Assembly: GCF_003711205.1 (NCBI RefSeq)
Contig: NZ_CP031013.1
Coordinates: 2,212,501 to 2,276,500, forward strand
Reading direction: 5' to 3'
Origin: Polaromonas sp. SP1
Lineage (GTDB): Bacteria; Pseudomonadota; Gammaproteobacteria; Burkholderiales; Burkholderiaceae_C
Length of the DNA stretch: 64,000 bases
Shown piece after piece: positions 2,398-60,012 of this stretch (the stretch's first letter is position 1; every line of letters starts with the position of its first letter). Below the pieces are notes generated by a model. The model was not told where the DNA came from. It worked only from the letters and a program-made list of their open reading frames with translations, and ran no database searches. A program made the translations under genes and the position numbers.

Positions 2398-2861
2398 GCG
2401 TGCTGGTCGCCGACGGTGAACGTCCGCGAGAAGGCGGCGCCGACCGCAAGGTCGTTGATGTCGCAGTCGGTGTGCTCATCCGCCCCAACGGAGACTTCCT
2501 GCTCACCTCACGCCCGCCCGGAAAGGTCTACGAAGGCTATTGGGAATTCCCCGGCGGCAAGCTCGAGCAAGGCGAAACCGTCGAAGCCGCGCTGCGCCGC
2601 GAGCTCCAGGAAGAAATCGGCATCACCATCGCGGCCGCGCATCCCTGGAAGGTCGAGATGGTCGACTACCCGCACGCGCTGGTGCGCCTGAACTTCTGCA
2701 AGGTGTTTGAGTGGACCGGCGAGTTGCACATGCATGAAGGCCAGTCTTATGCCTGGCAGTCGCTGCCGGTCAGCGTAGAGCCAGTGCTGCCTGGTACCGT
2801 TCCAGTGTTGACTTGGTTTGCCGAAGAGTGCGCTGGATCTTCAATAGAAAATGGCCTGTAG
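2394..2861 (+). CDS. mutT: MutT-type Nudix hydrolase
   Basis: The 155-aa protein has a complete Nudix box around residues 57-79, beginning GGKLEQGETVEAALRRE and ending EEIGI, and the surrounding fold resembles 8-oxo-dGTP diphosphatase MutT. MutT removes oxidised guanine nucleotides so they are not built into DNA. The ATG overlaps the stop of the DUF815 gene. The stop codon (TAG, 2859-2861) lies inside a copy of a dispersed short repeat, so the last few residues are encoded by the edge of that element and the ancestral end of the protein may have been different. The N-terminal 20 residues before VVDVAVGVLI are longer than in E. coli MutT. The family call is secure; the exact substrate is inferred. 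Confidence 0.82.
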   Translation: MSVLVADGERPREGGADRKVVDVAVGVLIRPNGDFLLTSRPPGKVYEGYWEFPGGKLEQGETVEAALRRELQEEIGITIAAAHPWKVEMVDYPHALVRLNFCKVFEWTGELHMHEGQSYAWQSLPVSVEPVLPGTVPVLTWFAEECAGSSIENGL

Positions 2862-2906
2862 CCCAATAAATACCTGGGCTGCGCGCTATAAATAAGATAG
2901 CAGCGC
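2850..2906 (+). repeat. Dispersed short repeat, family A, copy 1 (mutT 3' end)
   Basis: The copy begins GGCCTGTAGCCCA, has a palindromic GGGCT partner, and ends in a GCTATAAATAAGATAGC hairpin. It overlaps the end of mutT and gives that gene its TAG stop. Its orientation is the same as the copies at 8044, 21604, 43990 and 59960. See the findings for the family. Confidence 0.75.
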
Positions 2907-2917
2907 GTTTTATCAAG

Positions 2918-3005
2918 CAGGTGCCGCGGATCTGGCTTTGCCAGGCCGCAGGCGCCGCCCCCTGCAAGGGGGGAGCAGGCTACACGCAGTGAGCCTGGAC
3001 GGGGG
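2918..3005. repeat. GC-rich palindromic repeat, family B, copy 1
   Basis: This intergenic element lies between the convergent mutT and lytic transglycosylase genes. Its parts are CTGGCTTTGCCAGGCCGCAG, a GCCGCCCCC...GGGGGG hairpin, then CTACACGCAGTGAGCCTG and GGGGG. The same parts recur at 33563-33880 and 56761-56856 and, more loosely, at 23612 and 25527. It looks like a REP/BIME-type element. It could also act as a bidirectional terminator for the two genes that meet here. Confidence 0.7.
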
Positions 3006-3014
3006 TTAATCAAC

Positions 3015-3695
3015 TTAGCCGGCAAATTCCCAGTTCTTGCTCGCCCCCATGACGGCATTCGGATACGGCGACTTTCCGCGCGAGCCGTTGTAGCGGCCCA
3101 GGCCCATGAACAAATCGCCGCGCTCGCGGTCAAGGTAATGCCGCAGGATCACGCAGCCGAAGCGCAAATTGGTTTGCATGTGGAACAGCTTGCCCGCATC
3201 GCCGTCGCCGATCACGCGCGTCCAGAAGGGCATGACCTGCATGTAGCCGCGCGCGCCCACGTTGCTCACTGCGAACTTGCGGAAGTTGCTTTCGACCTGG
3301 ATCAGGCCCAGCACCAGCGTCACGTCCAGCCCGGCGCGTTTGCTCTCGTACCAGACGGTCTGCAAAAACTCTTTGCGGATCTGCCACTCGGGCTTTTTCT
3401 TCTTGAGGCGCTCGCTCATGGCGCCTAGCCAGCGCAAATATGTGAGCCGGCTTTCGGTGTCCCTGAACTCGGGAATGGGCGGCGCCTGGTTGGCGATGGC
3501 CGAGCTCAATGCGGTGCGCACGGAGTCGATCAGTGGCTCCTCAATCTGCGCGCCGGCACTCGCTTGCTCTGAAATCAATAGCGAACTGCCAAGGACTGGC
3601 AAGGCCTGGAGGCACTTTCTTCTTGAAATCAGCCCGGTCCCTGCAAAAGAAGAGACGCTGGATGCGGGCACGGTCACGAGGTCTGCGAAAGCCAT
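3015..3695 (-). CDS. Soluble-type lytic murein transglycosylase with Tat-like signal
   Basis: The 226-aa protein has an SLT domain in its second half: GLIQVESNF carries the catalytic Glu, followed by GARGYMQVMPFW and GRYNGSRG. Such enzymes cut peptidoglycan glycan strands in the periplasm, forming anhydro-muropeptides. The N-terminus contains SRRKCLQALPVLGSSLLIS, a twin-arginine motif and hydrophobic stretch, then an ASAGA cleavage-like site, so export by the Tat route is plausible. The DNA encoding that hydrophobic stretch (3563-3616) resembles a diverged copy of the family A repeat. The gene starts eight bases after the proS stop and is probably co-transcribed with it. It is short compared with Slt70; the exact subfamily is not assigned. 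Confidence 0.83.
   Translation of the reverse strand: MAFADLVTVPASSVSSFAGTGLISRRKCLQALPVLGSSLLISEQASAGAQIEEPLIDSVRTALSSAIANQAPPIPEFRDTESRLTYLRWLGAMSERLKKKKPEWQIRKEFLQTVWYESKRAGLDVTLVLGLIQVESNFRKFAVSNVGARGYMQVMPFWTRVIGDGDAGKLFHMQTNLRFGCVILRHYLDRERGDLFMGLGRYNGSRGKSPYPNAVMGASKNWEFAG
3563..3616 (-). repeat. Diverged family A repeat inside the lytic transglycosylase signal region
   Basis: On the plus strand the segment has TTGCTCTGAAATCAATAGC followed by a TGCCA...TGGCA palindrome and GCCTGGAGGC, matching the layout of the other reverse-oriented copies with several mismatches. It is read in frame by the lytic transglycosylase gene as the hydrophobic core of the signal peptide. This is the most diverged copy, so chance similarity is possible. 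Confidence 0.45.
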
Positions 3696-3702
3696 GTCAG
3701 CA

Positions 3703-5445
<1,743 letters not shown>

Positions 5446-5465
5446 GGGCGGTTTTCTGGAATTCC

Positions 5466-5536
5466 GGGGTGGAAAAAGGGGGTGGAAAGAAGACGAAAAG
5501 GGGGCAAAAAACGGGTGGAAAACGAATGGAAAGGGG
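5466..5536. other. Purine-rich tract upstream of proS
   Basis: On the plus strand this stretch is almost all G and A, with runs such as GGAAAAAGGGGG and GAAAAGGGGGCAAAAAACGGG. It lies in the divergent proS-rppH gap and would be the pyrimidine-rich 5' leader of proS on the other strand. A similar tract lies before gpmA (55788-55851). Confidence 0.6.
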
Positions 5537-5556
5537 TGCTGCAGCCCGCTGTGCGC

Positions 5557-5585
5557 TTGGCGCTGGGGCCTTCGCTGTGCATAAT
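5557..5585 (+). promoter_or_regulatory. Predicted sigma70 promoter for rppH
   Basis: TTGGCG (5557-5562) and CATAAT (5580-5585) are separated by exactly 17 bases, with a TG just upstream of the -10 (TGTGCATAAT). The start codon of rppH lies about 30 bases downstream with a GAGG ribosome site. Confidence 0.6.
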
Positions 5586-5616
5586 GGACTCAGTTTAAAA
5601 AATTTGAGGTTTGATT

Positions 5617-6327
5617 ATGCTTGACCGGGACGGCTTTAGGCCCAACGTCGGCATCATCTTGCTCAACCAGAGAAGTCAGGTATTTTGGGGCAAACGTATC
5701 CGTACCCACTCGTGGCAATTTCCGCAGGGTGGCATTGATCGGGGCGAAAATCCCGAGCAGGCCATGTACCGCGAGTTACATGAAGAAGTGGGGCTGTTGC
5801 CACAGCATGTGAATGTGCTGGCCCGAACCCGAGACTGGTTGCGCTATGAGGTGCCTGACCGGTTCATCCGCCGCGATGCGCGCGGACATTACAAAGGCCA
5901 GAAACAAATCTGGTTTCTCCTTCAGCTGGTCGGCCACGACTGGGATTTGAACCTGCGCGCCACCGACCACCCCGAGTTCGATGCCTGGCGCTGGAACGAC
6001 TACTGGGTGCCGCTGGATGTCGTGGTGGAGTTCAAGCGCGGCGTGTATGAAATGGCGCTGACCGAGCTGGCGCGTTTTGTGCCGCGTGTGGACAGCCGCA
6101 GCGATGTTCGCCCCGACCACCGCAACCGCTACCTGCGCGGTGGGCTGCATCAGCGCGACCATATCAGCCCGGCGGGTGACGCCGGCCTTCATCCCGGCTC
6201 CGGCGGCGACGCCTTCCACAAACCCGTCACCAGGCCGGGCGCCGCCTTCGAGTTGCCGCCCGGCGCCACCTTTGAACCGGATCCGCAGACCAGCCTGGAT
6301 GCGAATACCCAATCCACCAAAACATGA
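5617..6327 (+). CDS. rppH: RNA pyrophosphohydrolase RppH (Nudix)
   Basis: RppH removes pyrophosphate from the 5' end of primary transcripts and so starts RNase E-dependent mRNA decay. The protein begins [17 protein letters not shown], the typical RppH start, and has the Nudix box [20 protein letters not shown] near residues 35-54. I chose the ATG at 5617 because GAGG at 5606-5609 gives a seven-base spacing. The last 70 or so residues are an extension rich in Gly, Pro and Arg beyond the Nudix fold, common in this bacterial group and probably disordered. The next gene's ATG overlaps the stop by four bases. Confidence 0.93.
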
Positions 6328-6845
6328 ACTTCAAATCCGCTCTCCTGGTCTCTGTGGCGCTCCTGCTGGGTAACCATGCAGCCTGGGCCCAAACCCCGGC
6401 CTTTCTCACACCCGATGATCCCGACTGGAAAGAAACCGAAGTTCCGCCGCCGCCGGCGTTTGACGTCAGCAAGCTGGTGGTGTTTGATGCGTCACCCAAC
6501 TCGCAGCTTGTGTTTGGCGTAGACCCTGCCTCCATCCAGATATCGGAGAAAGACAGCCTGGTTCGTTATGTGATGGTGGCCACCAGCGCCAGCGGCGCGC
6601 GCAACGTCATGTATGAAGCCATACGCTGCGCGACAGGTGAGTTCAAGACCTATGCCCGCGCTTCGCCTGACGGCAAATGGAGCCATGTGAGCGATCCCAA
6701 GTGGCGCTCCATGTTTGACAACATGCCGTCCAAGCACGCCTTGCGTTTTGCCAAGGCCGGCGCCTGTGACAGCGCTGCGTCGGCGCCTTCGGTGCAGGTG
6801 CTGGTGTCGCGCCTGAAAAACCCCAACTTCAGGATGACCGACTGA
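6324..6845 (+). CDS. CNP1-like family exported protein
   Basis: The 173-aa product has a clear signal peptide ([19 protein letters not shown], cleaved after AWA) and resembles the CNP1-like family, named from a neisserial surface-exposed protein. The mature part is mixed alpha/beta with conserved-looking features such as [17 protein letters not shown], and it has two Cys that could pair. No enzymatic role is known for the family. The ATG overlaps the rppH stop (ATGA), so the two are probably translated together. It ends 50 bases before the convergent proB gene. Function unknown; export to the periplasm is inferred from the signal peptide. Confidence 0.7.
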
Positions 6846-6895
6846 GACCGTCGAGGCCAGCGACGCCGGTGCCTGCCGCAATGGGCCGGCGCCGC

Positions 6896-8032
6896 CTAGC
6901 GGGTCAGCACCAGGTTGGTACGGTGGACCATCTCGGGCTCACCGGTATAACCCAGCAGTTTCTCGAACTCTGACGACGCCTTGCGGCAAATCAGCCGGGC
7001 TTCAGCGCTTGAATAATTGGCCAGCCCGCGCGCGATCTCGGCGCCTTCAGGGCCCCGCACGGCGATCACATCGCCCCGCGAAAACTCTCCCTGAACCGCG
7101 GTCATGCCGATGGGCAGCAGGCTCTTGCCCTCATCCCTTACCTTGCCCACGGCGCCTGCATCCACCGTCACGGAGCCCCGCATCTGCAAGTGATCGGCCA
7201 TCCACTGTTTGCGCGCCTGCATTTTCTGGGTCTGCGCCACCAGCAGCGTGCCGATGGACTCACCCTGCGTCAGCCGGATGAGGGCCTGGGGTTCGCGGCC
7301 CCAGGCGATGACGGTCGAGGCGCCCGAGCCCGCGGCCCGCTTGGCCGCCAGGATCTTGGTGATCATGCCGCCCTTGCCGATGCTGGAGCCGGCGCCGCCC
7401 GCCATGGTCTCCAGCGCCGCATCACCGGCCTTGGCTTCGTGCACAAACTGTGCGGCCGGATCCTTGCGCGGGTCGGCGGTGTAAAGGCCACGCTGGTCAG
7501 TGAGGATCACCAGCGCATCGGCCTCCACCAGGTTGGCCACCAGCGCACCCAGGGTGTCGTTGTCGCCGAATTTGATCTCATCGTTGACGACCGTGTCGTT
7601 CTCGTTGATGACCGGCACCACGCCCAGTTGCAGCAAGGCCAGCAGGGTGGAGCGCGCGTTCAGGTAGCGTTCCCGGTCGGCCAGATCGGCGTGCGTGAGC
7701 AGCACCTGGGCGCTGCCGATGCCGTTTTCGCGCAGCTTGGTTTCGTAGACCTGGACCAGGCCCATCTGACCTACCGCGGCGGCGGCCTGCAGCTCGTGGA
7801 TGGCCTTGGGACGGGTGGTCCAGTTCAGGCGTTTCATGCCCTCGGCGATGGCGCCGCTGCTCACCATGATCACTTCGCGGCCGTCCTTCACGAGCGAGGC
7901 CAGTTGTTCGCACCACTGGCCGATGGCCACGGCGTCGAGTCCGCGGCCTTCATTGGTGACCAGGCTGGAGCCCACTTTGACCACGATGCGTTTGGCATTG
8001 CGCAGGATGGGAGAGCCTGTTTTTTCTTGCAT
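6896..8032 (-). CDS. proB: Glutamate 5-kinase ProB with PUA domain
   Basis: ProB phosphorylates glutamate to gamma-glutamyl phosphate, the first step of proline synthesis, and is usually feedback-inhibited by proline. The 378-aa protein has the amino-acid kinase domain ([12 protein letters not shown] at the start, then [18 protein letters not shown] and [14 protein letters not shown]) and a C-terminal PUA domain from about residue 285. The ATG gives [20 protein letters not shown]. It follows obgE on the same strand with a gap of about 110 bases that holds a family A repeat. The rplU-rpmA-obgE-proB order is common in Burkholderiales. Confidence 0.95.
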
Positions 8033-8043
8033 GTTTAAGTACT

Positions 8044-8102
8044 TTTCGGGCTCTAGCCCAATGAATACAAGGGGAGATAGCTACTATTTTTATAGCAAGC
8101 GC
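8044..8102 (+). repeat. Dispersed short repeat, family A, copy in obgE-proB gap
   Basis: The element reads GGGCTCTAGCCCA, a short spacer, then GATAGCTACTATTTTTATAG and CAAGC. It fills most of the space between the obgE stop and the proB start. Confidence 0.75.
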
Positions 8103-8143
8103 CGCCTTGCACCTGCTTGCTGATCCGTCTGGAAATGAGGGCG

Positions 8144-9229: not shown

Positions 9230-9285
9230 GATGGAGTGCTGCGGTTAAACCAGGGCTTCAGGGGCCGGAGATCAAGTTTACAAAC

Positions 9286-9310
9286 AAAAAAGCCCCGACA
9301 GGTCGGGGCT
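9286..9310 (-). terminator. Rho-independent terminator after rpmA
   Basis: AGCCCCGAC (9291-9299) pairs with GTCGGGGCT (9302-9310) around a two-base loop. On the minus strand this is followed by a run of Ts (9286-9290). It would end the rplU-rpmA transcript. Confidence 0.85.
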
Positions 9311-9346
9311 TCGTTTCAGTCGAAGTGACTTATCGAAGTGATCAGC

Positions 9347-9604: not shown

Positions 9605-9631
9605 TTTTCGTTACTCCTGGTACGTCCCTGC

Positions 9632-9943: not shown

Positions 9944-9993
9944 GTAAGACCTCGTAATTTGAGTTCTGCAGACGGATTTCCGCAGAGCCCAAT

Positions 9994-10109: not shown

Positions 10110-10139
10110 CTGCCCAAACCTAACGTCTGGACCCGCCTT

Positions 10140-18730: not shown

Positions 18731-18757
18731 GGGTGCGCGCGTGCTGAAGTGATGTCA

Positions 18758-18808
18758 TTGCTATCAAAAGAATAGCTGTAACCCAAGACGGTATATAGGC
18801 TGGAGGCC
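18758..18808 (-). repeat. Dispersed short repeat, family A, copy in prfA-prmC gap
   Basis: The plus strand shows GCTATCAAAAGAATAGCTGT, then ACCCA...TATAGGCTGGAGG, which is the family in reverse orientation. It occupies about half of the gap between prfA and prmC. Confidence 0.72.
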
Positions 18809-18851
18809 GATTTGGCATATAAAAACCGGGAAGGAATCATGGGGCGAAACC

Positions 18852-21493: not shown

Positions 21494-21784
21494 ATGACCT
21501 TCTACCTGCTGGCCAACCACCTGCTCAACCTTGTCCTGCCGGCTGCCGCCGTTGCGCTGCTGCTGGTATTGGCCACGCAGCTGATGGGCGGGGTTTTCAA
21601 GTCAAAAAGGCCTCTAGCCCATACGTGGTATGGGCAGGCAGCTATTGTTTTTGTAGCAAACGTGCTGGTGTTGGTGGCCGGGCTGGTGTTCTTCGGCCAT
21701 GACGGGAAGATGCTGACCTATGCCGCGATGGTGGTTGGGGCGGCGCTGTGTCAGTGGGCGGTACTGGGCGCGTGGCGCGCCTGA
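21494..21784 (+). CDS. Small integral membrane protein, unknown function
   Basis: The 96-aa protein has three likely membrane segments (about residues 8-32, 47-66 and 73-93). It is divergent from hemA with a gap of about 125 bases. Residues roughly 37-56 ([19 protein letters not shown]) are encoded by a complete family A repeat read in frame (21604-21661), so part of the second membrane segment may derive from the element. I do not recognise a functional family. It ends five bases before the convergent ugpQ stop. Confidence 0.6.
21604..21661 (+). repeat. Dispersed short repeat, family A, in frame in a membrane protein gene
   Basis: The copy reads AGGCCTCTAGCCCATA, a GGTATGGGC palindrome partner, then GCAGCTATTGTTTTTGTAGC and AAAC. 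It lies wholly inside the 96-aa membrane protein gene, in a frame where the CTCTAGCC stop is avoided (CCT CTA GCC). Confidence 0.75.
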
Positions 21785-27164: not shown

Positions 27165-30100
27165 ATGAACGCCCCTACTACACTTCAAGAACTCAACGTC
27201 TTTGCCGATGACGCCAAGACCGGCGAAGCCCGCATTCGCGAGATTCCGTACAACTACACCTCGTTTTCCGACCGTGAAGTCGTCATCCGCCTGCTCGGCG
27301 AGCGCGCCTGGGACCTGCTGAACCGCCTGCGCGACGAGCGCCGCACCGGCCGCTCCGCCCGCATGCTGTACGAAGTGCTGGGCGATGTCTGGGTCGTGCA
27401 GCGCAACCCCTATTTGCAGGACGACCTGCTGGACAACCCCAAGCGGCGCAAGCTGCTGGTCGATGCCTTGCAGCACCGCCTGACCGAGGTGGAAAAACGC
27501 CGCACGCCCGATGTGGACCCGCAGCGCGACGCCATCGTGGGCGAATTGCTGGACGCGGCCCGCGGCGCCGTCGCCCGCTTCTACACCTCCTTCAGCGAGA
27601 TCTACGACCTGCGCCGCCTGACCGAGCGCAAGCTGCGCAAGCTCACGCTCAAAGACAACATCAAGTTCGACGGCCTTTCGCGCGTCTCGCATGTCACCGA
27701 TGCGACCGACTGGCGTGTCGAGTACCCGTTTGTGGTGCTCACGCCCGACACTGAAGTCGAAATGGCCGGCCTGGTCAAGGCCTGTATCGAACTGGGCCTG
27801 ACGATTGTTCCGCGCGGCGGCGGTACCGGTTACACCGGCGGGGCGATTCCGCTCACCTGGAAGTCGGCCGTCATCAACACCGAAAAGCTCGAAGCCATGA
27901 CCGAGGTCGAAATGGTCTCGCTGCCGGGCGTTGAAAAGCCGGTGGCTACCGTGTGGACCGAGGCTGGTGTGGTCACCCAGCGTGTGGCCGACGCCGCCGA
28001 ACGCGGCGGTTTTGTCTTCGCGGTTGATCCGACCTCTGCCGAAGCCTCCTGCATAGGCGGCAATATCGCGATGAACGCGGGCGGCAAGAAGGCCGTGCTA
28101 TGGGGCACTGCGCTGGACAACCTCGCTTCATGGCGCATGGTCACCCCCGAGGCCCAGTGGCTGGAAGTCACGCGCGTGGGCCACAACCTCGGCAAGATCC
28201 ACGACGCCGAGATGGCCAGCTTTGAGCTGCAGTACTTCGAAGCCGACGGCAAGACCCCCATCCGCACCGAGCGGCTGGACATTCCCGGCAAGACCTTCCG
28301 CAAGGAAGGCTTGGGCAAAGACGTCACCGACAAGTTCCTGAGCGGCCTGCCCGGCATCCAGAAAGAAGGCTGTGACGGCCTCATCACCAGCGCACGCTGG
28401 ATCGTGCACCGCATGCCGGCGCACACCCGCACGGTCTGCCTGGAGTTCTTCGGCAACGCCAAGGACGCGGTGCCCAGCATCGTCGAGATCAAGGATTTCA
28501 TGTTCGCCGAGCAAAAGCGCGGCGGCGCCATCCTGGCGGGTCTCGAGCACCTGGACGACCGCTACCTGAAGGCGGTCGGCTACGCGACCAAATCGAAAAA
28601 GCACGGCGGCCTGCCGAAGATGGTGCTGTTTGGCGACATTGCGGGCGACGACGCCGATGCCGTGGCGCGCGCCACGTCGGAAGTCGTGCGCATTGCCAAC
28701 TCGCGCCACGGCGAAGGTTTTATTGCCATCAGCCCCGATGCCCGCAAGAAATTCTGGCTGGACCGCAAACGCACCGCGGCGATCTCCAAGCACACCAACG
28801 CCTTCAAGATCAATGAAGACGTGGTGATCCCTTTGCCCCGCATGGCCGAGTACACCGACGGCATCGAGCAGATCAATATCGAGCTCAGCCTGGCCAACAA
28901 GATTCGCCTGTGCGACGAGCTGGAGGCTTTTTTCCTCAAGGGCAACCTGCCGCTGGGCAAATCGGACGATGCCAACGACATTCCCTCGGCCGAGCTGCTG
29001 GAAGACCGCGTGGGCCAGGCGCTGGCGCTGATCGCTGAGGTGCGTACGCTCTGGTCCGGCTGGCTGGCCGGTGTGGCAACGCTGTTCCCGCAGCTGCAGG
29101 ACCACTCGCTGCGCGCCAGCTGGAAAACCGATATCCGCGCCAAACTGCAGGCGATTTTTTCGGGCGGCGCGTTCTTGCCGATTCTTGAAGAATGCAATGC
29201 CATCCACAAGCGCGTGCTCAAGGGCCGCGTCTGGGCGGCGCTGCACATGCATGCCGGCGACGGTAATGTGCACACCAACCTGCCCGTCAACAGCGACGAT
29301 TACGAGATGCTGCAGACCGCGCATGTGGCCGTGGCGCGCATCATGGTGCTGGCCCGCTCGCTGGACGGCGTGATCTCCGGCGAACACGGCATCGGCATCA
29401 CCAAGCTCGAATTCCTGACCGACGAAGAGCTGCGGCCCTTCACCGAATACAAACAAAAGGTGGATCCGGAAGGGCGCTTCAACAAAGGCAAGTTGCTACG
29501 AAATCAGGAGCAACATGCTCATGAAGGACGTGGGCTGCAGGCCAAAAACACTGAAAAATCAGTTTTGCACGCCGACCTGACCAACGCCTACACACCCAGC
29601 TTCGGCCTGATGGGGCACGAGTCGCTGATCATGCAGCAGTCCGATATCGGCGCCATCGCCGACAGCGTGAAAGACTGCCTGCGATGCGGCAAGTGCAAAC
29701 CGGTGTGCGCCACCCACGTGCCGCGCGCCAACCTGCTCTACAGCCCGCGCAACAAGATTCTTGCCACCTCGCTTCTGGTCGAAGCTTTCCTGTACGAGGA
29801 GCAAACCCGCCGCGGCGTGAGCATCAAGCACTGGGAAGAGTTCGAGGACGTGGCTGACCACTGCACGGTCTGCCACAAGTGCCTGACGCCTTGCCCGGTG
29901 GACATCGACTTCGGCGAAGTCTCGATGAACATGCGCAACCTGCTGCGCAAGATGGGGCAAAAGTCCTTCAGGCCCGGCAACGCCGCCGCCATGATTTTCC
30001 TGAACGCCACCAGCCCGCAGACCATCAAGTTCATGCGCGGCGCCATGGTGGACGTGGGCTTCAAGGCGCAGCGCCTGGCCAACGACCTGATGCGCCGGCT

Positions 30101-39624: not shown

Positions 39625-40905
39625 ATGGGATGGACCTTCCCGCCACCCTCGCCACTTCCAGGAAAAGAGCCGCCGGCCATGTTTCCACTCCACAAGTCCG
39701 GTGCGTTGCAACTGCTCCAGGGCGGGCGGGAATTTTTTCCTGCGCTCATCAATGCCCTCGACGCGGCGCACACCTGGATCCAGCTGGAAACCTATATTTT
39801 TGATTTCCACGGTGCCGGTGCCGAAGTGGCCGAGGCGCTGATCCGCGCGGCCCGGCGCGGCGTGACGGTGCAGGTGCTGGTTGATGGCATAGGCACCAGC
39901 CCCTTGCCGGCAAAGTGGCGCGATCAATTTGCGGCCGCCCAGGTCGACTGGTGTGTGTACTCACCCTTAGGCACGGGCTTGAGCGGGCTCGGCCTGCTGG
40001 TGCCCGAACGGTGGCGCAGGCTGCACCGCAAGCTCTGCGTGGTGGACCAGCACACGATGTTTTGCGGCGGCATCAATGTGCTTGACGATTTTTACGATCC
40101 CAACCATGGCGAGTTGCAGGCCCCGCGCGTTGATTTTTCCGTGGTGGTGACCGGCCCCCTGGCCGTGGAGGCGGCCGATGCCATGGCGTTGCTCTGGTGG
40201 CGCGTGCAGGCCGGCTACAGCGCGCGGCAGCGCCACATGGCCGCCGCATGGGAGAAGTTCAAGGAGGCGGGCTACGGCGGGCGCACCGGCACCACGCCGC
40301 TGGCCGCGGCCAACGGTGCGGGCGCCAGCGGACCCAAGGCAGCGCTCATCCTGCGCGACAACCTGCGCAACCGCAGCAGCATCGAGCGCGCCTACCGCAA
40401 GGCCATCGGCAAGGCGCACCAGGAAATCATCATTGCCAACGCCTACTTCCTGCCCGGTGGCAAGCTGCGGCGAGCCCTCGTCGGCGCGGCCAAACGCGGG
40501 GTACGCGTCACCTTGCTGCTGCAGGGGCGCTACGAATACTTCATGCAGTACCACGCGGCGCGCCCGGTTTACGGCGCGCTGCTGGCGGCGGGTGTGGAGA
40601 TCCATGAATACGAAGCAGGCTTCCTGCACGCCAAGGTGGCGGTGGTGGACGGGCACTGGGCGACGGTGGGCTCTTCCAACCTCGACCCCTTGAGCCTGCT
40701 GCTGGCGCGCGAAGCCAATGTGGTGGTAGAAGACAAGGCCTTCGCCGAAGGCCTGGCGGGCATTTTGCGTGAAGCCATGGTCAGCCACGGCCGGCGCATG
40801 GAGCCGGCCGACCACAGCCACCGCCCCCTCGGACGGCGCCTGCAGGGCTGGGTCGCCTACGCCCTGGTGCGGCTGGCTTTGCTGGTGGCCGGTCAGCGCT
40901 ATTAA
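39625..40905 (+). CDS. clsB: Cardiolipin synthase ClsB (phospholipase D family)
   Basis: ClsB makes cardiolipin from phosphatidylglycerol and another lipid at the inner membrane. The protein (about 426 aa) has two HKD motifs: HRKLCVVDQHTMFCGGIN near residue 134 and HAKVAVVDGHWATVGSSN near residue 335. QLETYIFDFHGAG near the N-terminus is also typical. The start is uncertain: the ATG at 39625 is chosen, but the frame is open back to a GTG at 39577. The stop (TAA, 40903-40905) falls at the edge of a family A repeat, so the C-terminal Tyr and stop may come from the element. Confidence 0.88.
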   Translation: MGWTFPPPSPLPGKEPPAMFPLHKSGALQLLQGGREFFPALINALDAAHTWIQLETYIFDFHGAGAEVAEALIRAARRGVTVQVLVDGIGTSPLPAKWRDQFAAAQVDWCVYSPLGTGLSGLGLLVPERWRRLHRKLCVVDQHTMFCGGINVLDDFYDPNHGELQAPRVDFSVVVTGPLAVEAADAMALLWWRVQAGYSARQRHMAAAWEKFKEAGYGGRTGTTPLAAANGAGASGPKAALILRDNLRNRSSIERAYRKAIGKAHQEIIIANAYFLPGGKLRRALVGAAKRGVRVTLLLQGRYEYFMQYHAARPVYGALLAAGVEIHEYEAGFLHAKVAVVDGHWATVGSSNLDPLSLLLAREANVVVEDKAFAEGLAGILREAMVSHGRRMEPADHSHRPLGRRLQGWVAYALVRLALLVAGQRY

Positions 40906-40951
40906 ATTGATAGCTGGTTGCCCAGATGGAATATGGGCTGGAGGCTAAAAA
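40898..40951 (-). repeat. Dispersed short repeat, family A, at the end of clsB
   Basis: The plus strand shows GCTATTAAATTGATAGCTGG, TTGCCCAGATGGAATATGGG, then CTGGAGGCTAAAAA, a near-ideal reverse-oriented copy. It starts within the last codons of clsB and supplies its TAA stop. Confidence 0.8.
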
Positions 40952-41003
40952 CCTTGTCAAACTACGGACAAGACGATTTGGGGGCAGGCTGGTAATATCT
41001 GGC

Positions 41004-43888: not shown

Positions 43889-43986
43889 ATTTGCCGGAAA
43901 GCTGTCTGTACATACAGTACATTGAGAGGCCTTCTCTGCTCCATGATCCGCCCTATCCCCGTGGGTCTTCACCCATAAAGTTCAGC

Positions 43987-44574
43987 ATGTTTTATGCCTC
44001 CAGCCCAATCACTGTATTGGCTGATAGCTATCAATTTGGTAGCAAATACTGCCCGCTGAAGGCCTGTTTCCTGGCCTTGCTTCTGCTGGCCGCCGCCCCT
44101 TTTTCCGCCTTCGCAGCCCCGCGCGCCAAAGCGGCCTGGTCCGGCGTGGTCACCTATGTGGTCGACGGCGACACGGTTCGTGTCAGGCCGCCTGGCGGCG
44201 GCAAGCCGGTCGCCATCCGCCTGGAGGGCATTGATGCGCCGGAAATCTGCCAGGCCTTTGGCACCGCTTCGCGCGATGCACTCATGCGGCAGGTGCTGGG
44301 CAAGCGCGTACAGGTCTACGGCAAACGCCATGACGACTACGGCCGCCTGCTGGCAAGGCTTGAGTTTCAGGGGGAAGACACCGGCAAATGGATGGTCGCG
44401 CGCGGCCTGGCCTGGTCTTACCGTTTCCGTTCCAGCCCCGGCCCCTATGCGTCGCAGCAGCGGCGCGCCAGGTCCGCGGGTTTGGGCCTGTTTTCGCCCG
44501 CGCATGGCACGCCGCCGGTGTACCCGGCGCAGTTTCGCCGGCAGCACGGCTCTTGCCATCCTGCGGGCAAATAA
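43987..44574 (+). CDS. Exported thermonuclease (SNase) family protein
   Basis: The 195-aa protein has a staphylococcal nuclease domain: VVDGDTVRVR, IRLEGIDAPE, GRLLARLEF and WMVARGLAWSYRF, with the Arg/Asp/Glu catalytic residues in place. Such enzymes degrade DNA and RNA with calcium. A signal-like hydrophobic stretch (CFLALLLLAAAPFSAFAAP) begins near residue 27. The only upstream ATG, at 43987, lies at the edge of a family A repeat, so residues 2-20 (FYASSPITVLADSYQFGSK) come from the element. Either the repeat provides the start codon or translation begins at a downstream TTG/CTG. Confidence 0.82.
   Translation: MFYASSPITVLADSYQFGSKYCPLKACFLALLLLAAAPFSAFAAPRAKAAWSGVVTYVVDGDTVRVRPPGGGKPVAIRLEGIDAPEICQAFGTASRDALMRQVLGKRVQVYGKRHDDYGRLLARLEFQGEDTGKWMVARGLAWSYRFRSSPGPYASQQRRARSAGLGLFSPAHGTPPVYPAQFRRQHGSCHPAGK
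43988..44048 (+). repeat. Dispersed short repeat, family A, at the N-terminus of the nuclease gene
   Basis: The copy reads TTTTATGCCTCCAGCCCAAT, CACTGTATTGGCTGATAGCT, ATCAATTTGGTAGCAAA. It is one of the best matches to the family and is read in frame by the nuclease gene. Confidence 0.8.
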
Positions 44575-49812: not shown

Positions 49813-49814
49813 TT

Positions 49815-52580: not shown

Positions 52581-52595
52581 AGCTTGCGGCGCGGG

Positions 52596-53369: not shown

Positions 53370-53430
53370 GAAGGAAAAGCGGGGCGGCCGCGCAAGGCGG
53401 GCGCCCCGGGGGCTTGGGCGCTATCGCGGC

Positions 53431-54870: not shown

Positions 54871-55042
54871 AGAAAATACCTTCGTTAACCTGTTGGGGAA
54901 CCCTTGCTCCCCCTATGTGAAGCAATATACACCTTGGAGAAAGGCCAAGTGCCACAGTTCCGCCAATCGGCGCCGCTTGTGCCGCAAATGCGCCAAAAGC
55001 TGCTGTTTTTACAGCACCTTTACAGAAAAAGCAGGGGATCGC

Positions 55043-55786
55043 TCAAGCCTTGCCCTGTGCGCCGACGGCGGCAGCCGCCTTGGCCGCGGCTTCGCTGTCG
55101 CCCAGGTAGTAATGGCGCAGCGGTTTGAGGTCCGCGTCCAGTTCATAGACCAGCGGAATGCCGTTGGGGATATTCAGGCCGACGATGTCCTGGTCCGAGA
55201 TGTTGTCCAGGTACTTCACCAGGGCCCGGATGGAGTTGCCGTGGGCTGCCACCACGATGCGCTTGCCGGCCTTGATGGCGGGCGCCATCGACTCGTTCCA
55301 GAAGGGCAGGACGCGGTCCACGGTGTCTTTGAGGCACTCGGTCAGCGGCACCTCGCCGGGCTGCAATTTGGCATATCGCGGGTCGCCGCGTTCGCTGCGC
55401 GCGTCGTTGGCGTCCAGCGGCGGGGGCGGGGTGTCGTAGCTGCGGCGCCAGACCAGCACCTGCTCGTCGCCGAATTTTTTGGCCGTTTCGGCCTTGTTCA
55501 GCCCTTGCAGGGCGCCGTAATGCCGCTCGTTGAGGCGCCAGCTGTGCACCACGGGCAGCCAGGTGCGGTCCATTTCGTCCAGCGTGTGCCAGAGCGTACG
55601 GGTCGCGCGCTTGAGCACGCTGGTGTAGGCCACATCAAAGTCATACCCCTCGGCTTTGAGCAGTTTCCCGGCATTTTTGGCCTGGGTGACGCCGGTTTCC
55701 GTCAGGTCGACATCCGTCCAGCCGGTGAAGCGGTTTTCAAGGTTCCAGGTCGATTCGCCGTGGCGGATAAGCACGAGTTTGTACAT
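55043..55786 (-). CDS. gpmA: 2,3-Bisphosphoglycerate-dependent phosphoglycerate mutase
   Basis: GpmA interconverts 3- and 2-phosphoglycerate in glycolysis. The 247-aa protein has the phospho-His motif [18 protein letters not shown] and [30 protein letters not shown] with the second His, and the normal length of dPGM. It is divergent from the rhodanese gene. Its 5' leader is pyrimidine-rich because of the purine-rich plus-strand tract at 55788-55851. Confidence 0.97.
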
Positions 55787-55787
55787 G

Positions 55788-55851
55788 ATGGGGAAGGAGG
55801 AGAGTGGAAAAAAAGGAGGAAAAAGGGAGAAAAAAGGGGAATAGGGAGGGG
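55788..55851. other. Homopurine tract in the gpmA leader
   Basis: The plus strand from just outside the gpmA start is almost only G and A for about 60 bases (for example GGAAGGAGGAGAG, GGAAAAAAAGGAGG, AGGGAGAAAAAAGGGGAA). A homopurine-homopyrimidine run of this length can adopt triplex structure. A similar tract precedes proS. Confidence 0.6.
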
Positions 55852-55932
55852 CGCCGGCGGGGCGTTTTCTCCCGCCATTCTAAAATCATGGGTTCGCTGA
55901 AAAAGCGCTCCAAGACACACAAAGGGTATACC

Positions 55933-56343
55933 GTGAAATTTCTGATCGACAACTGGATGCTGATTTCGATAGCGATCGCCTCGGGCGGCATGCTGATTTG
56001 GCCCATGGTTTCGGGCGCCATGAACGCCGGCGCGCTCACGGCCAGCGGCGCCGTGCAGCTGATCAACCGCGAAAAAGCCGTGGTGGTGGATGTCAGCGAG
56101 GCTGACGAATTTGCCGCCGGCCACGTGACGGGCGCCAAAAACGTGCCTTTCAGCGAGCTGGAAGGCAAACTCCCCGCCACCGTCAAAAACAAGGCTTTGC
56201 CGCTGATTTTGGTGTGCGCCACGGGTGCGCGCGCCGGCCGCGCCGTCGCCGTGGCCAAAAAGCTCGGCTACGAGCAGGCCCAATCACTGGGCGGCGGGCT
56301 TAAAGCCTGGAAAGAGGCTAACCTGCCTCTTGAGAAGGCCTGA
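55933..56343 (+). CDS. Membrane-anchored rhodanese-domain protein (YibN-like)
   Basis: The GTG at 55933 gives VKFLIDNWMLISIAIASGGM, the usual start of this family with one membrane segment, and 136 aa in all. The rhodanese domain follows with VVVDVSEADEFAAGHVTGAK and the active-site loop ILVCATGARAGRA, where the Cys carries persulfide. YibN-type proteins lie beside grxC, secB and gpsA in many proteobacteria, as here. The natural acceptor of sulfur is unknown. A start at the ATG at 55888 is possible. Confidence 0.88.
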   Translation: MKFLIDNWMLISIAIASGGMLIWPMVSGAMNAGALTASGAVQLINREKAVVVDVSEADEFAAGHVTGAKNVPFSELEGKLPATVKNKALPLILVCATGARAGRAVAVAKKLGYEQAQSLGGGLKAWKEANLPLEKA

Positions 56344-56464
56344 TCCGGCCTTTGCCACTGATTCGGCACTGGCCGGGCCCGGCGGGCATGAAAGCTGCTG
56401 GTTCTCGCGTCACCTGCCTTCCGCGCCGGGCTTTATGCCGGGCCGGCCCCCCCCGGAGAACCCC

Positions 56465-56728
56465 ATGCAAACCGTCAAGATCTACACCACCGGCACCTGC
56501 CCTTACTGCATCCAGGCCAAACAGTTGCTCAAGCAGCGCGGCGTCACCGAACTCGATGAAATCCGCGTCGACATGGAACCCGGCGAGCGCCAGAAGATGA
56601 TGGAAATCACCGGCCGGCGCACCGTGCCGCAAATCTTCATCGGCGAAACCCACGTCGGCGGCTGCGACGACCTGATGGCCCTGGACGGCCGCGGCGGCCT
56701 GATGCCCCTTCTGAACCCCGCCGCTTGA
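56465..56728 (+). CDS. grxC: Glutaredoxin 3
   Basis: The 87-aa protein has the dithiol active site TCPYCIQAK and the glutathione-binding TVPQIFIGETHVGG, so it is a class I glutaredoxin that reduces protein disulfides with glutathione. GGAGAA lies six bases before the ATG. It lies between the rhodanese and secB genes; a family B repeat follows before secB. Confidence 0.95.
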   Translation: MQTVKIYTTGTCPYCIQAKQLLKQRGVTELDEIRVDMEPGERQKMMEITGRRTVPQIFIGETHVGGCDDLMALDGRGGLMPLLNPAA

Positions 56729-56760
56729 GCTGGCTGCGGGGCCATATCTCTTCGCCAGCA

Positions 56761-56856
56761 TGAGCCGCGGGACTGGCTTTGCCAGACCGCAGGCGGGCGG
56801 CCCCCTCGGGGGGGCAGGGAGCTACACAAAGTGAGCGACCGTGGGGGCCACATACA
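56761..56856. repeat. GC-rich palindromic repeat, family B, between grxC and secB
   Basis: The copy has CCGCGGGACTGGCTTTGCCA, GGCCCCCTCGGGGGGGCAGG and ACACAAAGTGAGCGACCGTG then GGGG. It is nearly identical to the inverted copy at 33787-33880. Confidence 0.8.
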
Positions 56857-56864
56857 CGGCTCCC

Positions 56865-56870
56865 TATAAT
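56865..56870 (+). promoter_or_regulatory. Possible -10 element for secB
   Basis: A perfect TATAAT lies about 68 bases before the secB ATG, just after the family B repeat, so the repeat may separate secB from the grxC transcript. No clear -35 is seen. Confidence 0.4.
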
Positions 56871-56937
56871 TCGTTGGTTGCCCGCCCGCCGGTGCATCCA
56901 AACCCGTATCCAACCTTCCCCGACCCGAAAGAGCACC

Positions 56938-57408
56938 ATGGCTGAAGCCAATCTTGACCCCGTATTCCAGATCCAGCGCGTCTACCTCAAGGACGTCTCG
57001 CTCGAGCAGCCCAATTCGCCTGAAATCCTGCTGAACCCCGAGCAGCCTGCCGTGGACATCCAGCTGGGTGTGGACGCCACCCCCGTGGCGGACGGCCTGT
57101 TTGAGGTGGCTGTGACGGCCACGGTGCAGACCAAGATTGCCGACAAGACCGTCTTCCTGGTCGAAGCCAAGCAGGCCGGCATTTTTGAAATCCGCAACAT
57201 TCCCGCCGACCAGATGGGTGCGATCCTGGGCATCGCCTGCCCGCAGATCGTGTACCCCTACCTGCGCGGCAACGTGGCCGACGTGATCCAGCGCGGCGGT
57301 TTCCCGCCCGTGCACATGGCGGAAATCAACTTCCAGGCCATGTACGAGCAGCAGCAGGCCCAGGCCGCCGCAGCCGCCGAGCCTGCCGCACCGCAGATCA
57401 TCGTTTGA
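56938..57408 (+). CDS. secB: Protein-export chaperone SecB
   Basis: SecB keeps preproteins unfolded and delivers them to SecA, whose tail is encoded at the start of this window. The 156-aa protein has [20 protein letters not shown] and [20 protein letters not shown], and [17 protein letters not shown] near the end. Its C-terminus is Ala-rich. It has a possible promoter and a good terminator of its own. Confidence 0.97.
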
Positions 57409-57414
57409 TGAACC

Positions 57415-57441
57415 GCCGGGTCTACAGCCCGGCTTTTTTTT
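57415..57441 (+). terminator. Rho-independent terminator after secB
   Basis: GCCGGG (57415-57420) pairs with CCCGGC (57428-57433) around a seven-base loop and is followed by eight Ts. It lies directly after the secB stop. Confidence 0.88.
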
Positions 57442-57463
57442 GTGATTCCTTCGTGATCCCTTC

Positions 57464-58489
57464 ATGAAAATACTGGTCATCGGTGCGGGCGCCTGGGGTA
57501 CGGCCATCGCCGTCAGCAGCGCGGTCCGCCACCAGGTCACACTCTGGGCGCGCGACGCTGCCCTGGTCAAAAACCTGCGGGCCAGCCGCACCAACCACCG
57601 CTACCTGCCCGGTGTGGCGCTGCCTGAAGGCCTGCGGCTGCAAGGCGGCGACGTGCCGCTGGCGCAGGCCGTGGCCGGGCAAGACCTCATCATCCTGGCC
57701 ACGCCGGTGTCTGCGGCCCGCATCATGCTGCAAAGCCTGGAGCACGCCAGCGTGCCGGTGGCCTGGCTGAGCAAGGGGTTCGAAGCGCCCCTGGATACAG
57801 CTCCGTCTACCGATTCTTCTGCATCGTTTGGGCTGATGGTCCATGAAATACGTGCGCAGGCTGCTATCAATTTAAGAGCGGGCGTGCTCAGCGGGCCCAG
57901 CTTTGCGCTGGAAGTCGCCCGCGGCCAGCCGACGGCGCTGGTAGCCGCCAGCGAGCACGCCGAGGTGCGCGACGCGCTGGTCGCTGCGTTTCACAGCGCC
58001 ACGCTGCGCGTCTATGCCAACGACGACGTGATCGGCGTGGAAGTGGGCGGCGCCGTGAAGAACGTGCTGGCGATTGCCACCGGGCTGTGCGACGGCCTGC
58101 AACTGGGCCTGAATGCGCGCGCTGCGCTCATCACGCGCGGCCTGGCCGAAATGACGCGCCTGGGCGTGGCGCTGGGCGCCCGCGCCGAAACCTTCACGGG
58201 TTTGTCCGGCCTGGGCGACCTGGTGCTGACCGCCACCGGCGACCTGAGCCGCAACCGCAAGGTGGGGCTGCTGCTGGCCGAGGGCAAAACGCTGGCGCAA
58301 GCCGTTGATTCGCTGGGCCACGTGGCCGAGGGCGTGTACTGCGCCCGCACCGTGGTGCAGCGCGCCGCAGGGCTGGGCATCGAGATGCCGATTGCGCAGG
58401 CCGTGGTCGCCTTGCTGGACGGCAAACTCAAGCCCGCCGAAGCGGTGGCGGCGCTGATGGGCCGTGAGCCGACGGCCGAACTGGCCTGA
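57464..58489 (+). CDS. gpsA: Glycerol-3-phosphate dehydrogenase [NAD(P)+]
   Basis: GpsA reduces dihydroxyacetone phosphate to sn-glycerol-3-phosphate for phospholipids. The 341-aa protein starts [16 protein letters not shown], has the NAD loop, the catalytic Lys in [16 protein letters not shown], and [20 protein letters not shown]. Residues about 105-125 ([15 protein letters not shown]) and 126-139 ([16 protein letters not shown]) include DNA that resembles a family A repeat at 57827-57881, in frame. The flanks look native, so only part may be repeat-derived. Together with the ugp operon, glycerol-3-phosphate metabolism is well represented here. Confidence 0.94.
57827..57881 (+). repeat. Possible family A repeat inside gpsA
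   Basis: The segment has TTTGGGCTGATGG, CCATGAAATACGTGCGCAGG and CTGCTATCAATTTAAGAGCG. The last 20 bases match the conserved hairpin end of the family closely. It is translated in frame in gpsA. Confidence 0.5.
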
Positions 58490-58536
58490 GCGCTTGTTCG
58501 CCGCTTTCTGCCTCCGCTTCTTTCCGCTTCTTCTTT

Positions 58537-58593
58537 TGCTATTGAATTGATAGCTGTATGCCCAGGCGGCGCCTGGGCTGGAGCCCTAAAAAA
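58537..58593 (-). repeat. Dispersed short repeat, family A, downstream of gpsA
   Basis: The plus strand has TTGCTATTGAATTGATAGCT, GTATGCCCAGGCGGCGCCTG and GGCTGGAGCCCTAAAAA, a clear reverse-oriented copy between gpsA and the convergent cupin gene. Confidence 0.8.
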
Positions 58594-58630
58594 TCATGAT
58601 GGGGCTGGCCGGCGGCACGACGGCAGCCGG

Positions 58631-58960
58631 CTACTTGCGCAAATGCAGCGTCACCAGCAGCGAAGCGTCCTGCACCGCCGTCAGCCCGTGCGGCACGCCG
58701 CCCGCCAGCCACAGCAACTGGCCGGCTTTCATGGGCTGGGTCTGCCCGTTGGCGGTGAAGGCCACCTCGCCTTCCAGGCATTGCACGGTGATTTCGCCTT
58801 TGACCTGGTGCGAAGGCACGGTCTTGCCGGCCGGCACGATCAGGCGCATCACTTCCAGTTCTTCGCTTTTGAACAGCGCGACGGTACGGCCCTCGGACAG
58901 CTTGCCGGCCAGCGGCTGGACGTCGATGAGTTGCCCGGAGGCGGCGTGGGGGATGGCCAT
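58631..58960 (-). CDS. Small cupin-domain protein
   Basis: The ATG at 58960 follows AGGAG and gives a 109-aa single-cupin protein. The second half has SHQVKGEITVQCLEGEVAFT and GGVPHGLTAVQDASLL, covering the two cupin motifs with possible metal-binding His and Glu. Cupins of this size have varied roles, so no substrate is proposed. It is the first of a group on the minus strand facing gpsA. Two GNAT genes lie upstream. Confidence 0.75.
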   Translation of the reverse strand: MAIPHAASGQLIDVQPLAGKLSEGRTVALFKSEELEVMRLIVPAGKTVPSHQVKGEITVQCLEGEVAFTANGQTQPMKAGQLLWLAGGVPHGLTAVQDASLLVTLHLRK

Positions 58961-59039
58961 GGTGGAACTCCTGCGAACATGGCGACAGCACATCGCCTGC
59001 AAACTTTATACCCCAAGGGCTGCGCCGGCGAAACGGTCC

Positions 59040-59498
59040 CTATACCGTCTTGTTGTAGGCCAGGAAGACGTCGTCGCGCACCCAGCCCAGCGATTCGTAA
59101 AGCGCCTGCGCCGCGTGGTTGGTCCGGGCGGTGGTGAGGTCCAGCCGCGCAAAGCCGGTGGCCTGCGCGTGCGCATGGGCCGCCAGCATCAGCGCGCGGC
59201 CGGCGCCGCTTTTGCGGGCTTCGGGCGCCACATACAGGTCGTACAGCGTGTAAATCGGCTGGGCGATCACCGAGCAGAAACCGGGGTACAGCTGGCAGAA
59301 GCCGACGAGCGAACCTTCAGTGCCGGCAGTTTGCGCCACCAGGATCACCGACTCCCGGTTGCGCATGCGGTCACCGATGAATTGCAGCGCCAGCGCCGGA
59401 TCGGCCGGCTGCTCGTAAAACTGCCGGTAGGCGTCAAACAGCGCGGCGGCTTGCGGCAGGTCGTGCAGGCCGGTCAGGCGGACGGCGACAGCGCTCAT
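59040..59498 (-). CDS. GNAT family N-acetyltransferase
   Basis: The 152-aa protein has the GNAT core: YDLYVAPEARKSGAGRALML, the acetyl-CoA loop, then LTTARTNHAAQALYESLGWV near the end. The substrate is unknown. The ATG at 59498 gives MSAVAVRLTGLHDLPQAAAL. It is 25 bases downstream of another GNAT gene on the same strand and the two may be co-transcribed. They are not close copies. Confidence 0.88.
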   Translation of the reverse strand: MSAVAVRLTGLHDLPQAAALFDAYRQFYEQPADPALALQFIGDRMRNRESVILVAQTAGTEGSLVGFCQLYPGFCSVIAQPIYTLYDLYVAPEARKSGAGRALMLAAHAHAQATGFARLDLTTARTNHAAQALYESLGWVRDDVFLAYNKTV

Positions 59499-59523
59499 GC
59501 CAGCGTTTTTTCCATGAAGACGC

Positions 59524-59946
59524 TCAAGGGTCGTGCACATACGCGCCGAAAGGCTCTCGCAGCACGTAACCCAGCCGCGCATACAGGCCCAGCGCCTCGG
59601 GCTGGTGAATGCCCGTCTCCAGCCGGGCCAGCCGCACGCCGGTGGCCTGCAGGTGCTCCTCCAGCGTTTGCATGATGGCCTTTGAAAGCCCTTTGCCGCG
59701 GTGCTGCTCAAGAACAAAGACACGTTTGATTTCCCCGTAGCGCCCGTCGTTGTCCAGCGTTTTGACGGCGCCGCAAGCAACCAGCTCGCCTTCAATGTGC
59801 GCGCCGACAAACAGCACGTTGGGCTGGCTGAGCGCCGAGAGGCTTTCGAGGTGGTTGCTCTCGGCCGGGTAAAGCGCCGCCATGTAAGCGTCCGACAGCG
59901 CGATCAGCGCGGCGGCCGATGGCGGGTCTACAGGGGTGATGTGCAT
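59524..59946 (-). CDS. GNAT family N-acetyltransferase
   Basis: The 140-aa protein starts MHITPVDPPSAAALIALSDA and has the GNAT signature KRVFVLEQHRGKGLSKAIMQ, then GIHQPEALGLYARLGYVLRE. The RGKGLSKA stretch is the pyrophosphate-binding loop. Its substrate is not known; the N-terminal half resembles proteins annotated as putative acetyltransferases with PAESNH motif. A family A repeat separates it from panC upstream. Confidence 0.87.
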   Translation of the reverse strand: MHITPVDPPSAAALIALSDAYMAALYPAESNHLESLSALSQPNVLFVGAHIEGELVACGAVKTLDNDGRYGEIKRVFVLEQHRGKGLSKAIMQTLEEHLQATGVRLARLETGIHQPEALGLYARLGYVLREPFGAYVHDP

Positions 59947-59959
59947 GGATTAGTGATCA

Positions 59960-60012
59960 AATTGGCCTCTAGCCCAGACGCCGTCTGGGCTTTCAGCTAT
60001 CAAAAAAGGAGC
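59960..60012 (+). repeat. Dispersed short repeat, family A, between panC and GNAT gene
   Basis: The copy has AATTGGCCTCTAGCCCAGAC, GCCGTCTGGGCTTTCAGCTA and TCAAAAAAGGAGC. AGCCCAGACG and CGTCTGGGCT form a perfect ten-base-pair stem with no gap beyond the turn, which is the clearest palindrome of the family. Confidence 0.82.

What the first reader, a model, noticed from the sequence alone, without database searches (positions are those of the whole stretch)
2850..60012. Dispersed 50-60 bp element, about twelve copies in 64 kb, in and between genes
Seen in sequence: copies at 2850, 3563 (diverged), 8044, 18758, 21604, 29493, 40898, 43131 (weak), 43988, 57827 (weak), 58537 and 59960. Shared layout: (TTTT)GGCCTCTAGCCCA, a palindromic GGGC partner, then AGCTATCAAATT...ATAGCAA, present in both orientations. 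The density is high and the element carries two inverted repeats, so it resembles a MITE or REP element. Similar short repeats occur in Comamonadaceae genomes as I recall, but I cannot name a published family. The spread inside genes is the odd part.
Basis: partly seen in the sequence, partly recalled or inferred. Interest (0 to 1): 0.72.

Follow-up and report, generated by a model that had tools for sequence, protein, structure and literature searches.

The report
Conserved repeat scattered through Polaromonas genomes
A 66-letter DNA motif occurs hundreds of times in this bacterium, mostly between genes but sometimes inside them; at the places tested, related species keep its key letters, so it looks more like a working signal than like dead repeat DNA.

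Summary
The repeat is real. The window lies in a 4.5 Mb Polaromonas genome. A 400 kb sample holds 43 copies, so roughly 480 genome-wide. It occurs in 80 of 250 family genomes (own included) and 0 of 24 from other families.

It does not behave like an active MITE or REP: the closest of 81 copies are 82% identical, the palindromes do not covary, no insertion with target duplication was seen, and a RAYT-like gene is present with or without the element.

Copies are old and often shared between species. Between pairs of relatives (6 sites), high-information positions are 83% identical, low-information ones 50%, flanks 57%. In DapE it is an in-frame insertion in a probably disordered loop, with unusually conserved codons. 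In gpsA and a 96-aa membrane protein the motif shows no clean insertion and its score tracks genome copy number.

Best reading: a maintained DNA-level recognition site with an unknown reader, perhaps a DNA-uptake signal. Eight literature searches found no description of it.

The parts
2840..2905 (+). copy, overlaps the 3' end of called gene 2394-2861
   Evidence: R1 59.9 bits E=5.8e-15; spacer-only profile E=3e-9, not in its training set
3562..3627 (-). diverged copy; called spacer, but relatives differ mostly by 3-nt steps, so it may lie in the N-terminal part of ORF 3015-3695
   Evidence: R1 29.6 bits E=1.9e-6; E=2e-10 (in training set)
8035..8100 (+). spacer copy, shared with G344, G315, G347; degraded at the same length in G032 and G334
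   Evidence: R1 60.1 bits; alignments
18756..18821 (-). spacer copy, shared with G315 and G347
   Evidence: R1 64.9 bits
21596..21661 (+). copy inside the 96-aa membrane-protein gene 21494-21784, in frame
   Evidence: R1 69.3 bits; spacer-only profile E=4e-14, not in its training set
29491..29556 (-). diverged copy inside the 1310-aa DUF3683 / FAD-oxidase gene, opposite strand
   Evidence: R1 32.1 bits; spacer-only profile E=1.8e-7, not in its training set; Pfam
40894..40959 (-). copy overlapping the 3' end of called gene 39679-40905
   Evidence: R1 62.6 bits; E=8e-12, not in the training set
43982..44047 (+). copy at the 5' end of the SNase-domain gene called at 43987-44574 (true start uncertain)
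   Evidence: R1 69 bits; E=5.5e-14, not in the training set; Pfam
57818..57883 (+). gpsA coding site; only the 3' half (57841-57880) matches the spacer-only profile
   Evidence: 20.3 bits E=1.8e-4
58534..58599 (-). spacer copy between convergent genes, shared with G337
   Evidence: R1 71.4 bits
59951..60016 (+). spacer copy, shared with G337 and (degraded) G344; absent from G032 and G334
   Evidence: R1 69.7 bits
   Evidence: R1 E=0.15; spacer-only profile E=3.6 at best nearby on this strand

Best explanation
A family of roughly 480 dispersed 50-66 bp sites, spread long ago (in DapE by in-frame insertion) and since inherited largely in place. The copies tested are kept by selection or drive on specific bases, not on hairpin pairing. 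Shown: the family, its number, sharing between species, position-specific conservation at six spacer sites and in DapE, lack of covariation, absence from a whole clade. Inferred: that a protein reads it, and what that protein does.
For: Orthologous spacer copies compared between two relatives (6 sites, 10 non-independent pairs): high-information positions 239 of 287 identical, low-information element positions 55 of 109, spacer flanks 173 of 302; high beats flank in 9 of 10 pairs. DapE: about 25 residues of in-frame insertion missing from the two solved DapE proteins whose alignments were shown, present in long form in 21 of 80 fetched loci and in a shorter form in 9 more (counted by eye). In those 21 plus the own gene, synonymous-codon identity of the insert is 0.73 against 0.605 elsewhere, 0 of 349 windows as high, while amino-acid identity is 0.49 against 0.85; its two halves alone reach 0.737 (15 of 385 windows as high) and 0.758 (12 of 388). 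The lowest-GC3 8-codon window of the whole protein is the motif in DapE, gpsA and the 96-aa protein. Motif score at the 96-aa gene and at gpsA follows genome copy number (Spearman 0.83, n=36; 0.72, n=37). No covariation. 80 plus-strand and 70 minus-strand copies among the best 150.
Against: Total information is about 72 bits, far above the roughly 14 bits that 480 sites in 4.5 Mb call for (my arithmetic); a single binding protein does not explain that. The first conservation test over all 15 aligned site pairs showed core 0.717 against flank 0.759, before the probably coding site 3562 and the element-poor genomes were taken out. One of the ten relative pairs goes the other way (L046 1368: 20/28 v 61/83). 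gpsA and the 96-aa gene show no marked synonymous conservation (0.633 v 0.623; 0.58 v 0.51 with 15 of 73 windows as high). Bearers G001, G002, G016, G019, G020 and G025 score low at gpsA. The profile recognises only 8 of the 19 long DapE inserts whose loci were printed. No reader was found; ComEC is in 244 of 250 family genomes and does not discriminate.
Confidence: 0.5

Rival explanations
1. Relics of a selfish palindromic element of the Rickettsia (RPE) kind: an old mobile repeat that inserted mostly in spacers and now and then in frame in tolerant loops, now immobile.
For: In-frame insertion in a DapE loop; all 8 same-strand copies inside called genes at 20 bits or more share one reading phase (they include the weak gpsA, CoaBC-like and L041 9804 hits, and I did not inspect each one); strong enrichment in spacers, most in convergent ones (14 observed, 6.9 expected); about 13 extra residues just upstream of the gpsA motif and variable length beside the 96-aa motif could be insertion remains.
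Against: Neutral relics should not keep specific positions at single sites between species nor DNA-level codon identity in DapE. If ORF 3015-3695 is the real gene, copy 3562 is same-strand in another phase (my reading).
Confidence: 0.28
2. DNA-uptake signal: a long-form analogue of DUS/USS that gives Comamonadaceae their sequence-specific transformation; copies are kept or improved by uptake-biased recombination.
For: Sequence-specific transformation is reported for Verminephrobacter eiseniae, and no cross-species transformation for the tested Acidovorax strains (PMC4212676, passages). At gpsA the state proline v I/V/T changes three times on the gene tree, the derived state only in bearers. 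Depleted in coding DNA; no match in 72,556 plasmid or 50,697 phage records, nor by a strict pattern in the viral contigs.
Against: USS evolve by point mutation and are not inserted (PMC7811141, passages), yet DapE has an insertion. The motif is far longer than a 9-12 bp core and several times sparser. Scores in the sample peak near full length with few intermediates. ComEC is nearly universal, and one genome with five R1 matches (G098) has no ComEC match. The plasmid, phage and viral searches had limited power: a like pattern hits only 22 of roughly 480 own copies.
Confidence: 0.17
3. A transcript-level element (terminator, mRNA end or stability hairpin).
For: Enriched in convergent spacers and overlapping some gene ends; two inverted repeats.
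Against: No pair covariation; no run of T right after the GC-rich stem in the consensus (by eye); in tandem spacers orientation is 7 same, 8 opposite; conserved inside the DapE frame.
Confidence: 0.1

Closest known systems
Beta-proteobacterial repeat element (BRE), PMC3110155
   Same: Short dispersed repeat in Bordetella and Comamonadaceae including Polaromonas, usually in spacers, some copies entirely inside coding sequences (section 14)
   Different: Bordetella BREs are 75-91 bp at full length and 63.7-78.9% GC, at most 29 per genome in the paper's table, sometimes in tandem; this element is 66 nt, 35-59% GC among copies at E<1e-4, roughly 480 copies, no tandem arrays seen in the sample.
Rickettsia palindromic elements (RPE), as told in PMC10969869 (passages)
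   Same: Palindromic repeat found in frame inside unrelated genes
   Different: RPEs are about 150 bp; here 66 nt, mostly in spacers, no hairpin covariation, position-specific conservation at single sites
DNA uptake sequences (USS/DUS), PMC7811141 (passages)
   Same: Hundreds of copies, depleted in coding DNA, presence differing between lineages
REP elements with RAYT transposase
   Same: Palindromic, mainly extragenic, many copies
   Different: No link to the RAYT-like gene, which in the own genome and several relatives has GGGTCAGA/TCTGACCC ends of its own; no covariation

Membership tests
MITE | recent, near-identical copies | tested here: not met
   best pair 82%, mean 61% among 81 ungapped own-genome copies at 25 bits or more, of roughly 480
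MITE | terminal inverted repeats and target-site duplications | tested here: inconclusive
   consensus ends are not inverted repeats of each other by eye; no clean empty site with duplication among 11 window and 4 L046 sites aligned
REP / RAYT | copies beside or dependent on a RAYT transposase | tested here: not met
   RAYT-like gene in 15 of 15 genomes tested, element-poor ones included; element within about 1 kb of it at 2 of 17 loci
REP / RAYT | hairpin kept by paired changes | tested here: not met
   18 copies: shuffles reach the observed pairing in 489 of 500; no stem signal among the top covarying columns of 81 copies
RPE | in-frame insertion in protein-coding genes | tested here: met
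   DapE insertion absent from solved homologues shown and from other species
RPE | large stable hairpin of about 100-150 bp | tested here: not met
   66 nt, no covariation; energy not computed
BRE | GC-rich, 75-91 bp | tested here: not met
   35-59% GC and 66 nt; BRE figures from section 14 of PMC3110155
BRE | sequence match to published BRE | not tested
   sequence not in the text held
DUS/USS | sites gained in place, not inserted | tested here: inconclusive
   the matching half of gpsA aligns without a gap to solved GpsA, but about 13 extra residues lie just upstream; DapE is an insertion
DUS/USS | raises DNA uptake | not testable with these tools
   needs a transformation assay
DUS/USS | short core of 9-12 bp | tested here: not met
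   conserved blocks span about 50 nt, about 72 bits in all

The most novel reading that the evidence does not exclude
Probability: 0.15. Interest if true: 0.9.

Novelty: new variant of a known kind. Interest (0 to 1): 0.6.

Why it matters
A repeat that is inserted in frame in an essential gene in some species and also held base by base in spacers is neither a plain selfish relic nor a textbook regulatory site. If it has a protein reader, Comamonadaceae would have a genome-wide signal comparable to uptake sequences, with a testable link to their reported sequence-specific transformation. It would also be a case of DNA-level selection altering protein sequence at loops.

Tried and rejected
Whole-genome count by model R1: the tool scores at most 150 candidates, so I used a systematic 20 x 20 kb sample. 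27 of its 43 copies at 20 bits or more trained the spacer-only profile.

Circularity: R1 was trained on coding copies too, so gpsA looked strong (50 bits); with the spacer-only profile it falls to 20.3 bits. I first read gpsA as an in-frame insertion; relatives and solved structures did not bear that out for the matching half.

Two intragenic R1 hits (ChrA-like at L047 18793, CoaBC-like at L054 12545; names recalled, not searched) resemble native protein sequence; the first falls to E=0.085, the second stays at E=5.5e-5 and is in the phase count.

First conservation test, all 15 aligned site pairs: core 0.717, flank 0.759, against my reading. It mixed in site 3562 (probably coding) and the element-poor G032/G334. 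I then left those out and split positions by information (30 positions at 1.2 bits or more, 13 below 0.7 bits inside columns 14-64; the other 23 left out). The own-versus-relative figures (hi 409/471, lo 117/188, flank 429/619) are biased by choosing own copies with the profile, so I rely on relative-versus-relative, where two of eight sites (58534, L046 15061) drop out for having one relative only.

RAYT as mobiliser, ComEC as a discriminating gene, strand or regional bias: no support. GC skew of the sample gave no clean replichores. The gpsA score used a wrong search range for some genomes (G347 at least) and was redone. On re-checking for this report I lowered the uptake reading from 0.2 to 0.17 and the novel case from 0.18 to 0.15, because one search shows about 13 extra gpsA residues just upstream of the motif, and raised the relic reading from 0.27 to 0.28.

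Eight literature searches gave no description of this element; only open-licence PMC text is held, and I saw listings for all but the four papers cited and PMC3733652 (a word search with no hit for Polaromonas, Acidovorax, Delftia, Comamonas, Rhodoferax or Burkholderia).
Full report
Observation. The listed segments do align as one family. Because that model held window and coding copies, I rebuilt a sequence-only profile from 32 spacer copies: ten window copies at E<=2e-7 (five outside the training set), gpsA at 1.8e-4, best reversed control 6.9 bits. A position-matrix scan of the 400 kb sample gives 50 sites above 5 bits (27 of them in the training set), and none in reversed or 3-mer-shuffled DNA.

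Numbers and place. The window is G000:C1:2212501-2276500 of a 4.507 Mb single contig. The genus is taken as Polaromonas from the named DapE relatives. At 20 bits or more there are 54 copies in 464 kb: 11 in the window and 43 in the 400 kb sample, i.e. about 485 per genome. In the sample 30 of 43 lie in spacers, 4 overlap gene ends and 9 lie inside called genes, with 88% of the DNA called coding (genes by my own caller). Among 33 spacer copies with both neighbours (R1 set, window included), 14 are in convergent, 15 in tandem and 4 in divergent spacers (expected by length 6.9, 17.2, 8.8; p=0.006).

Distribution. With model R1, 26 of 37 Polaromonas genomes (own included) and 0 of 24 genomes of other families match; in the family 80 of 250 genomes (own included), 48 of 126 genera. 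Counts in relatives are capped by the tool and many genomes are drafts. On a single-gene gpsA tree of 37 genomes nine element-free genomes form a clade, and G032+G334 sit inside the bearers, next to G000/G344/G337; an eleventh genome without R1 matches, G022, was not placed.

Not mobile now. The closest two of 81 own-genome copies are 82% identical, mean 61%. By eye, most of 15 window and L046 sites are occupied in at least one relative; where absent, the spacer is shorter, without a clean empty site. The palindromes do not covary. A RAYT-like gene is present in 15 of 15 genus genomes tested, element-poor ones included; an element lies near it at 2 of 17 loci, and GGGTCAGA/TCTGACCC repeats lie beside it in the own genome and in most relatives checked.

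Kept base by base. The comparison between two relatives, which avoids conditioning on G000's own bases, gives high-information positions 239/287, low-information element positions 55/109, flanks 173/302 (six sites, ten pairs that are not independent; high beats flank in nine of ten). At site 8035 the element-poor G032 and G334 show the reverse: 40/60 against flank 65/84. The cruder first test over all 15 pairs had shown no excess (core 0.717, flank 0.759).

Inside genes. DapE: query residues 56-81 have no counterpart in the two solved DapE proteins shown. By eye a long form of the insert is present in 21 of 80 fetched loci, a shorter motif-bearing form in nine loci, Rhodoferax among them, and it is absent from others, including JS666, Ramlibacter monticola and Comamonas aquatica. 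The spacer-only profile recognises 8 of the 19 long inserts whose loci were printed. An AlphaFold model of the nearest relative's DapE (28-sequence alignment, mean pLDDT 87) has one segment below 50, residues 64-83, which lies in the insertion. Its codons keep the motif: GC3 0.37 against 0.79, synonymous identity 0.73 against 0.605 with 0 of 349 windows as high, although its amino acids are far more variable (0.49 against 0.85). The 96-aa membrane protein (no Pfam family; found in 127 of 150 family genomes) carries the motif; across 30 other loci the motif stretch itself is ungapped in all but one, but there is a 4-residue length difference just upstream, and element-free Polaromonas differ in length by several residues. 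Across 36 Polaromonas genomes its motif score follows copy number (Spearman 0.83). gpsA: the matching 3' half aligns without a gap to solved GpsA, with about 13 extra residues just upstream. All 11 genomes with 0-3 copies have proline at the site with mostly GC-rich codons; of the other 26, 16 have I, V or T in GCTATCAAT-like codons and 4 have GCTCCTGAT-like codons. Spearman with copy number is 0.72, n=37; parsimony gives three state changes with proline ancestral. Neither gene shows markedly raised synonymous identity. Same-strand copies inside called genes at 20 bits or more: 8 of 8 share one phase; copy 3562 would differ if the longer ORF 3015-3695 is real.

Reading. Neutral relics of a selfish repeat do not predict position-specific conservation at single sites, and a transcript-level hairpin does not predict lack of covariation and of orientation. 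An uptake signal is the most specific version: PMC4212676 (passages) reports sequence-specific transformation in V. eiseniae and none between Acidovorax species, with no signal sequence named in the passages I saw. Against it stand length, information content, the DapE insertion, and ComEC in 244 of 250 genomes.

Known kinds. BRE (section 14 of PMC3110155) overlaps in hosts and in sometimes lying within genes but is GC-rich and longer. RPE (passages of PMC10969869) is the nearest precedent for in-frame palindromic DNA. USS (passages of PMC7811141) are the nearest precedent for genome-wide, non-inserted signals.

Noticed in passing
window 2924, 23631, 33793, 56765: A second, GC-rich dispersed repeat (CCGCGGA.CTGGCTTTGCCAGGCCGC, then C and G runs and CAGTGAGCGA), 74-83% alike.
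   Followed up: no
G000:C1, about 2172390-2173145 (L289:8390-9145): A RAYT-like Y1 transposase gene, one copy in 13 and two in 2 of 15 Polaromonas genomes tested, flanked here by inverted GGGTCAGA-type repeats; an element copy overlaps its 3' end here and lies near it in G337.
   Followed up: partly
window 21494-21784: A small membrane protein without a Pfam family, matched in 109 of 126 genera of the family.
   Followed up: partly
G005, G007, G013, G018, G023, G027, G030, G031, G034: Nine draft Polaromonas genomes form one gpsA clade with no R1 match; several are small (1.8-3 Mb).
   Followed up: partly
L117, L118, L124, L133, L135, L136, L139, L140, L141, about 2.1-2.7 kb in the locus: Another element copy upstream of dapE recurs at a similar position in nine named Polaromonas loci; orthology was not tested.
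   Followed up: no
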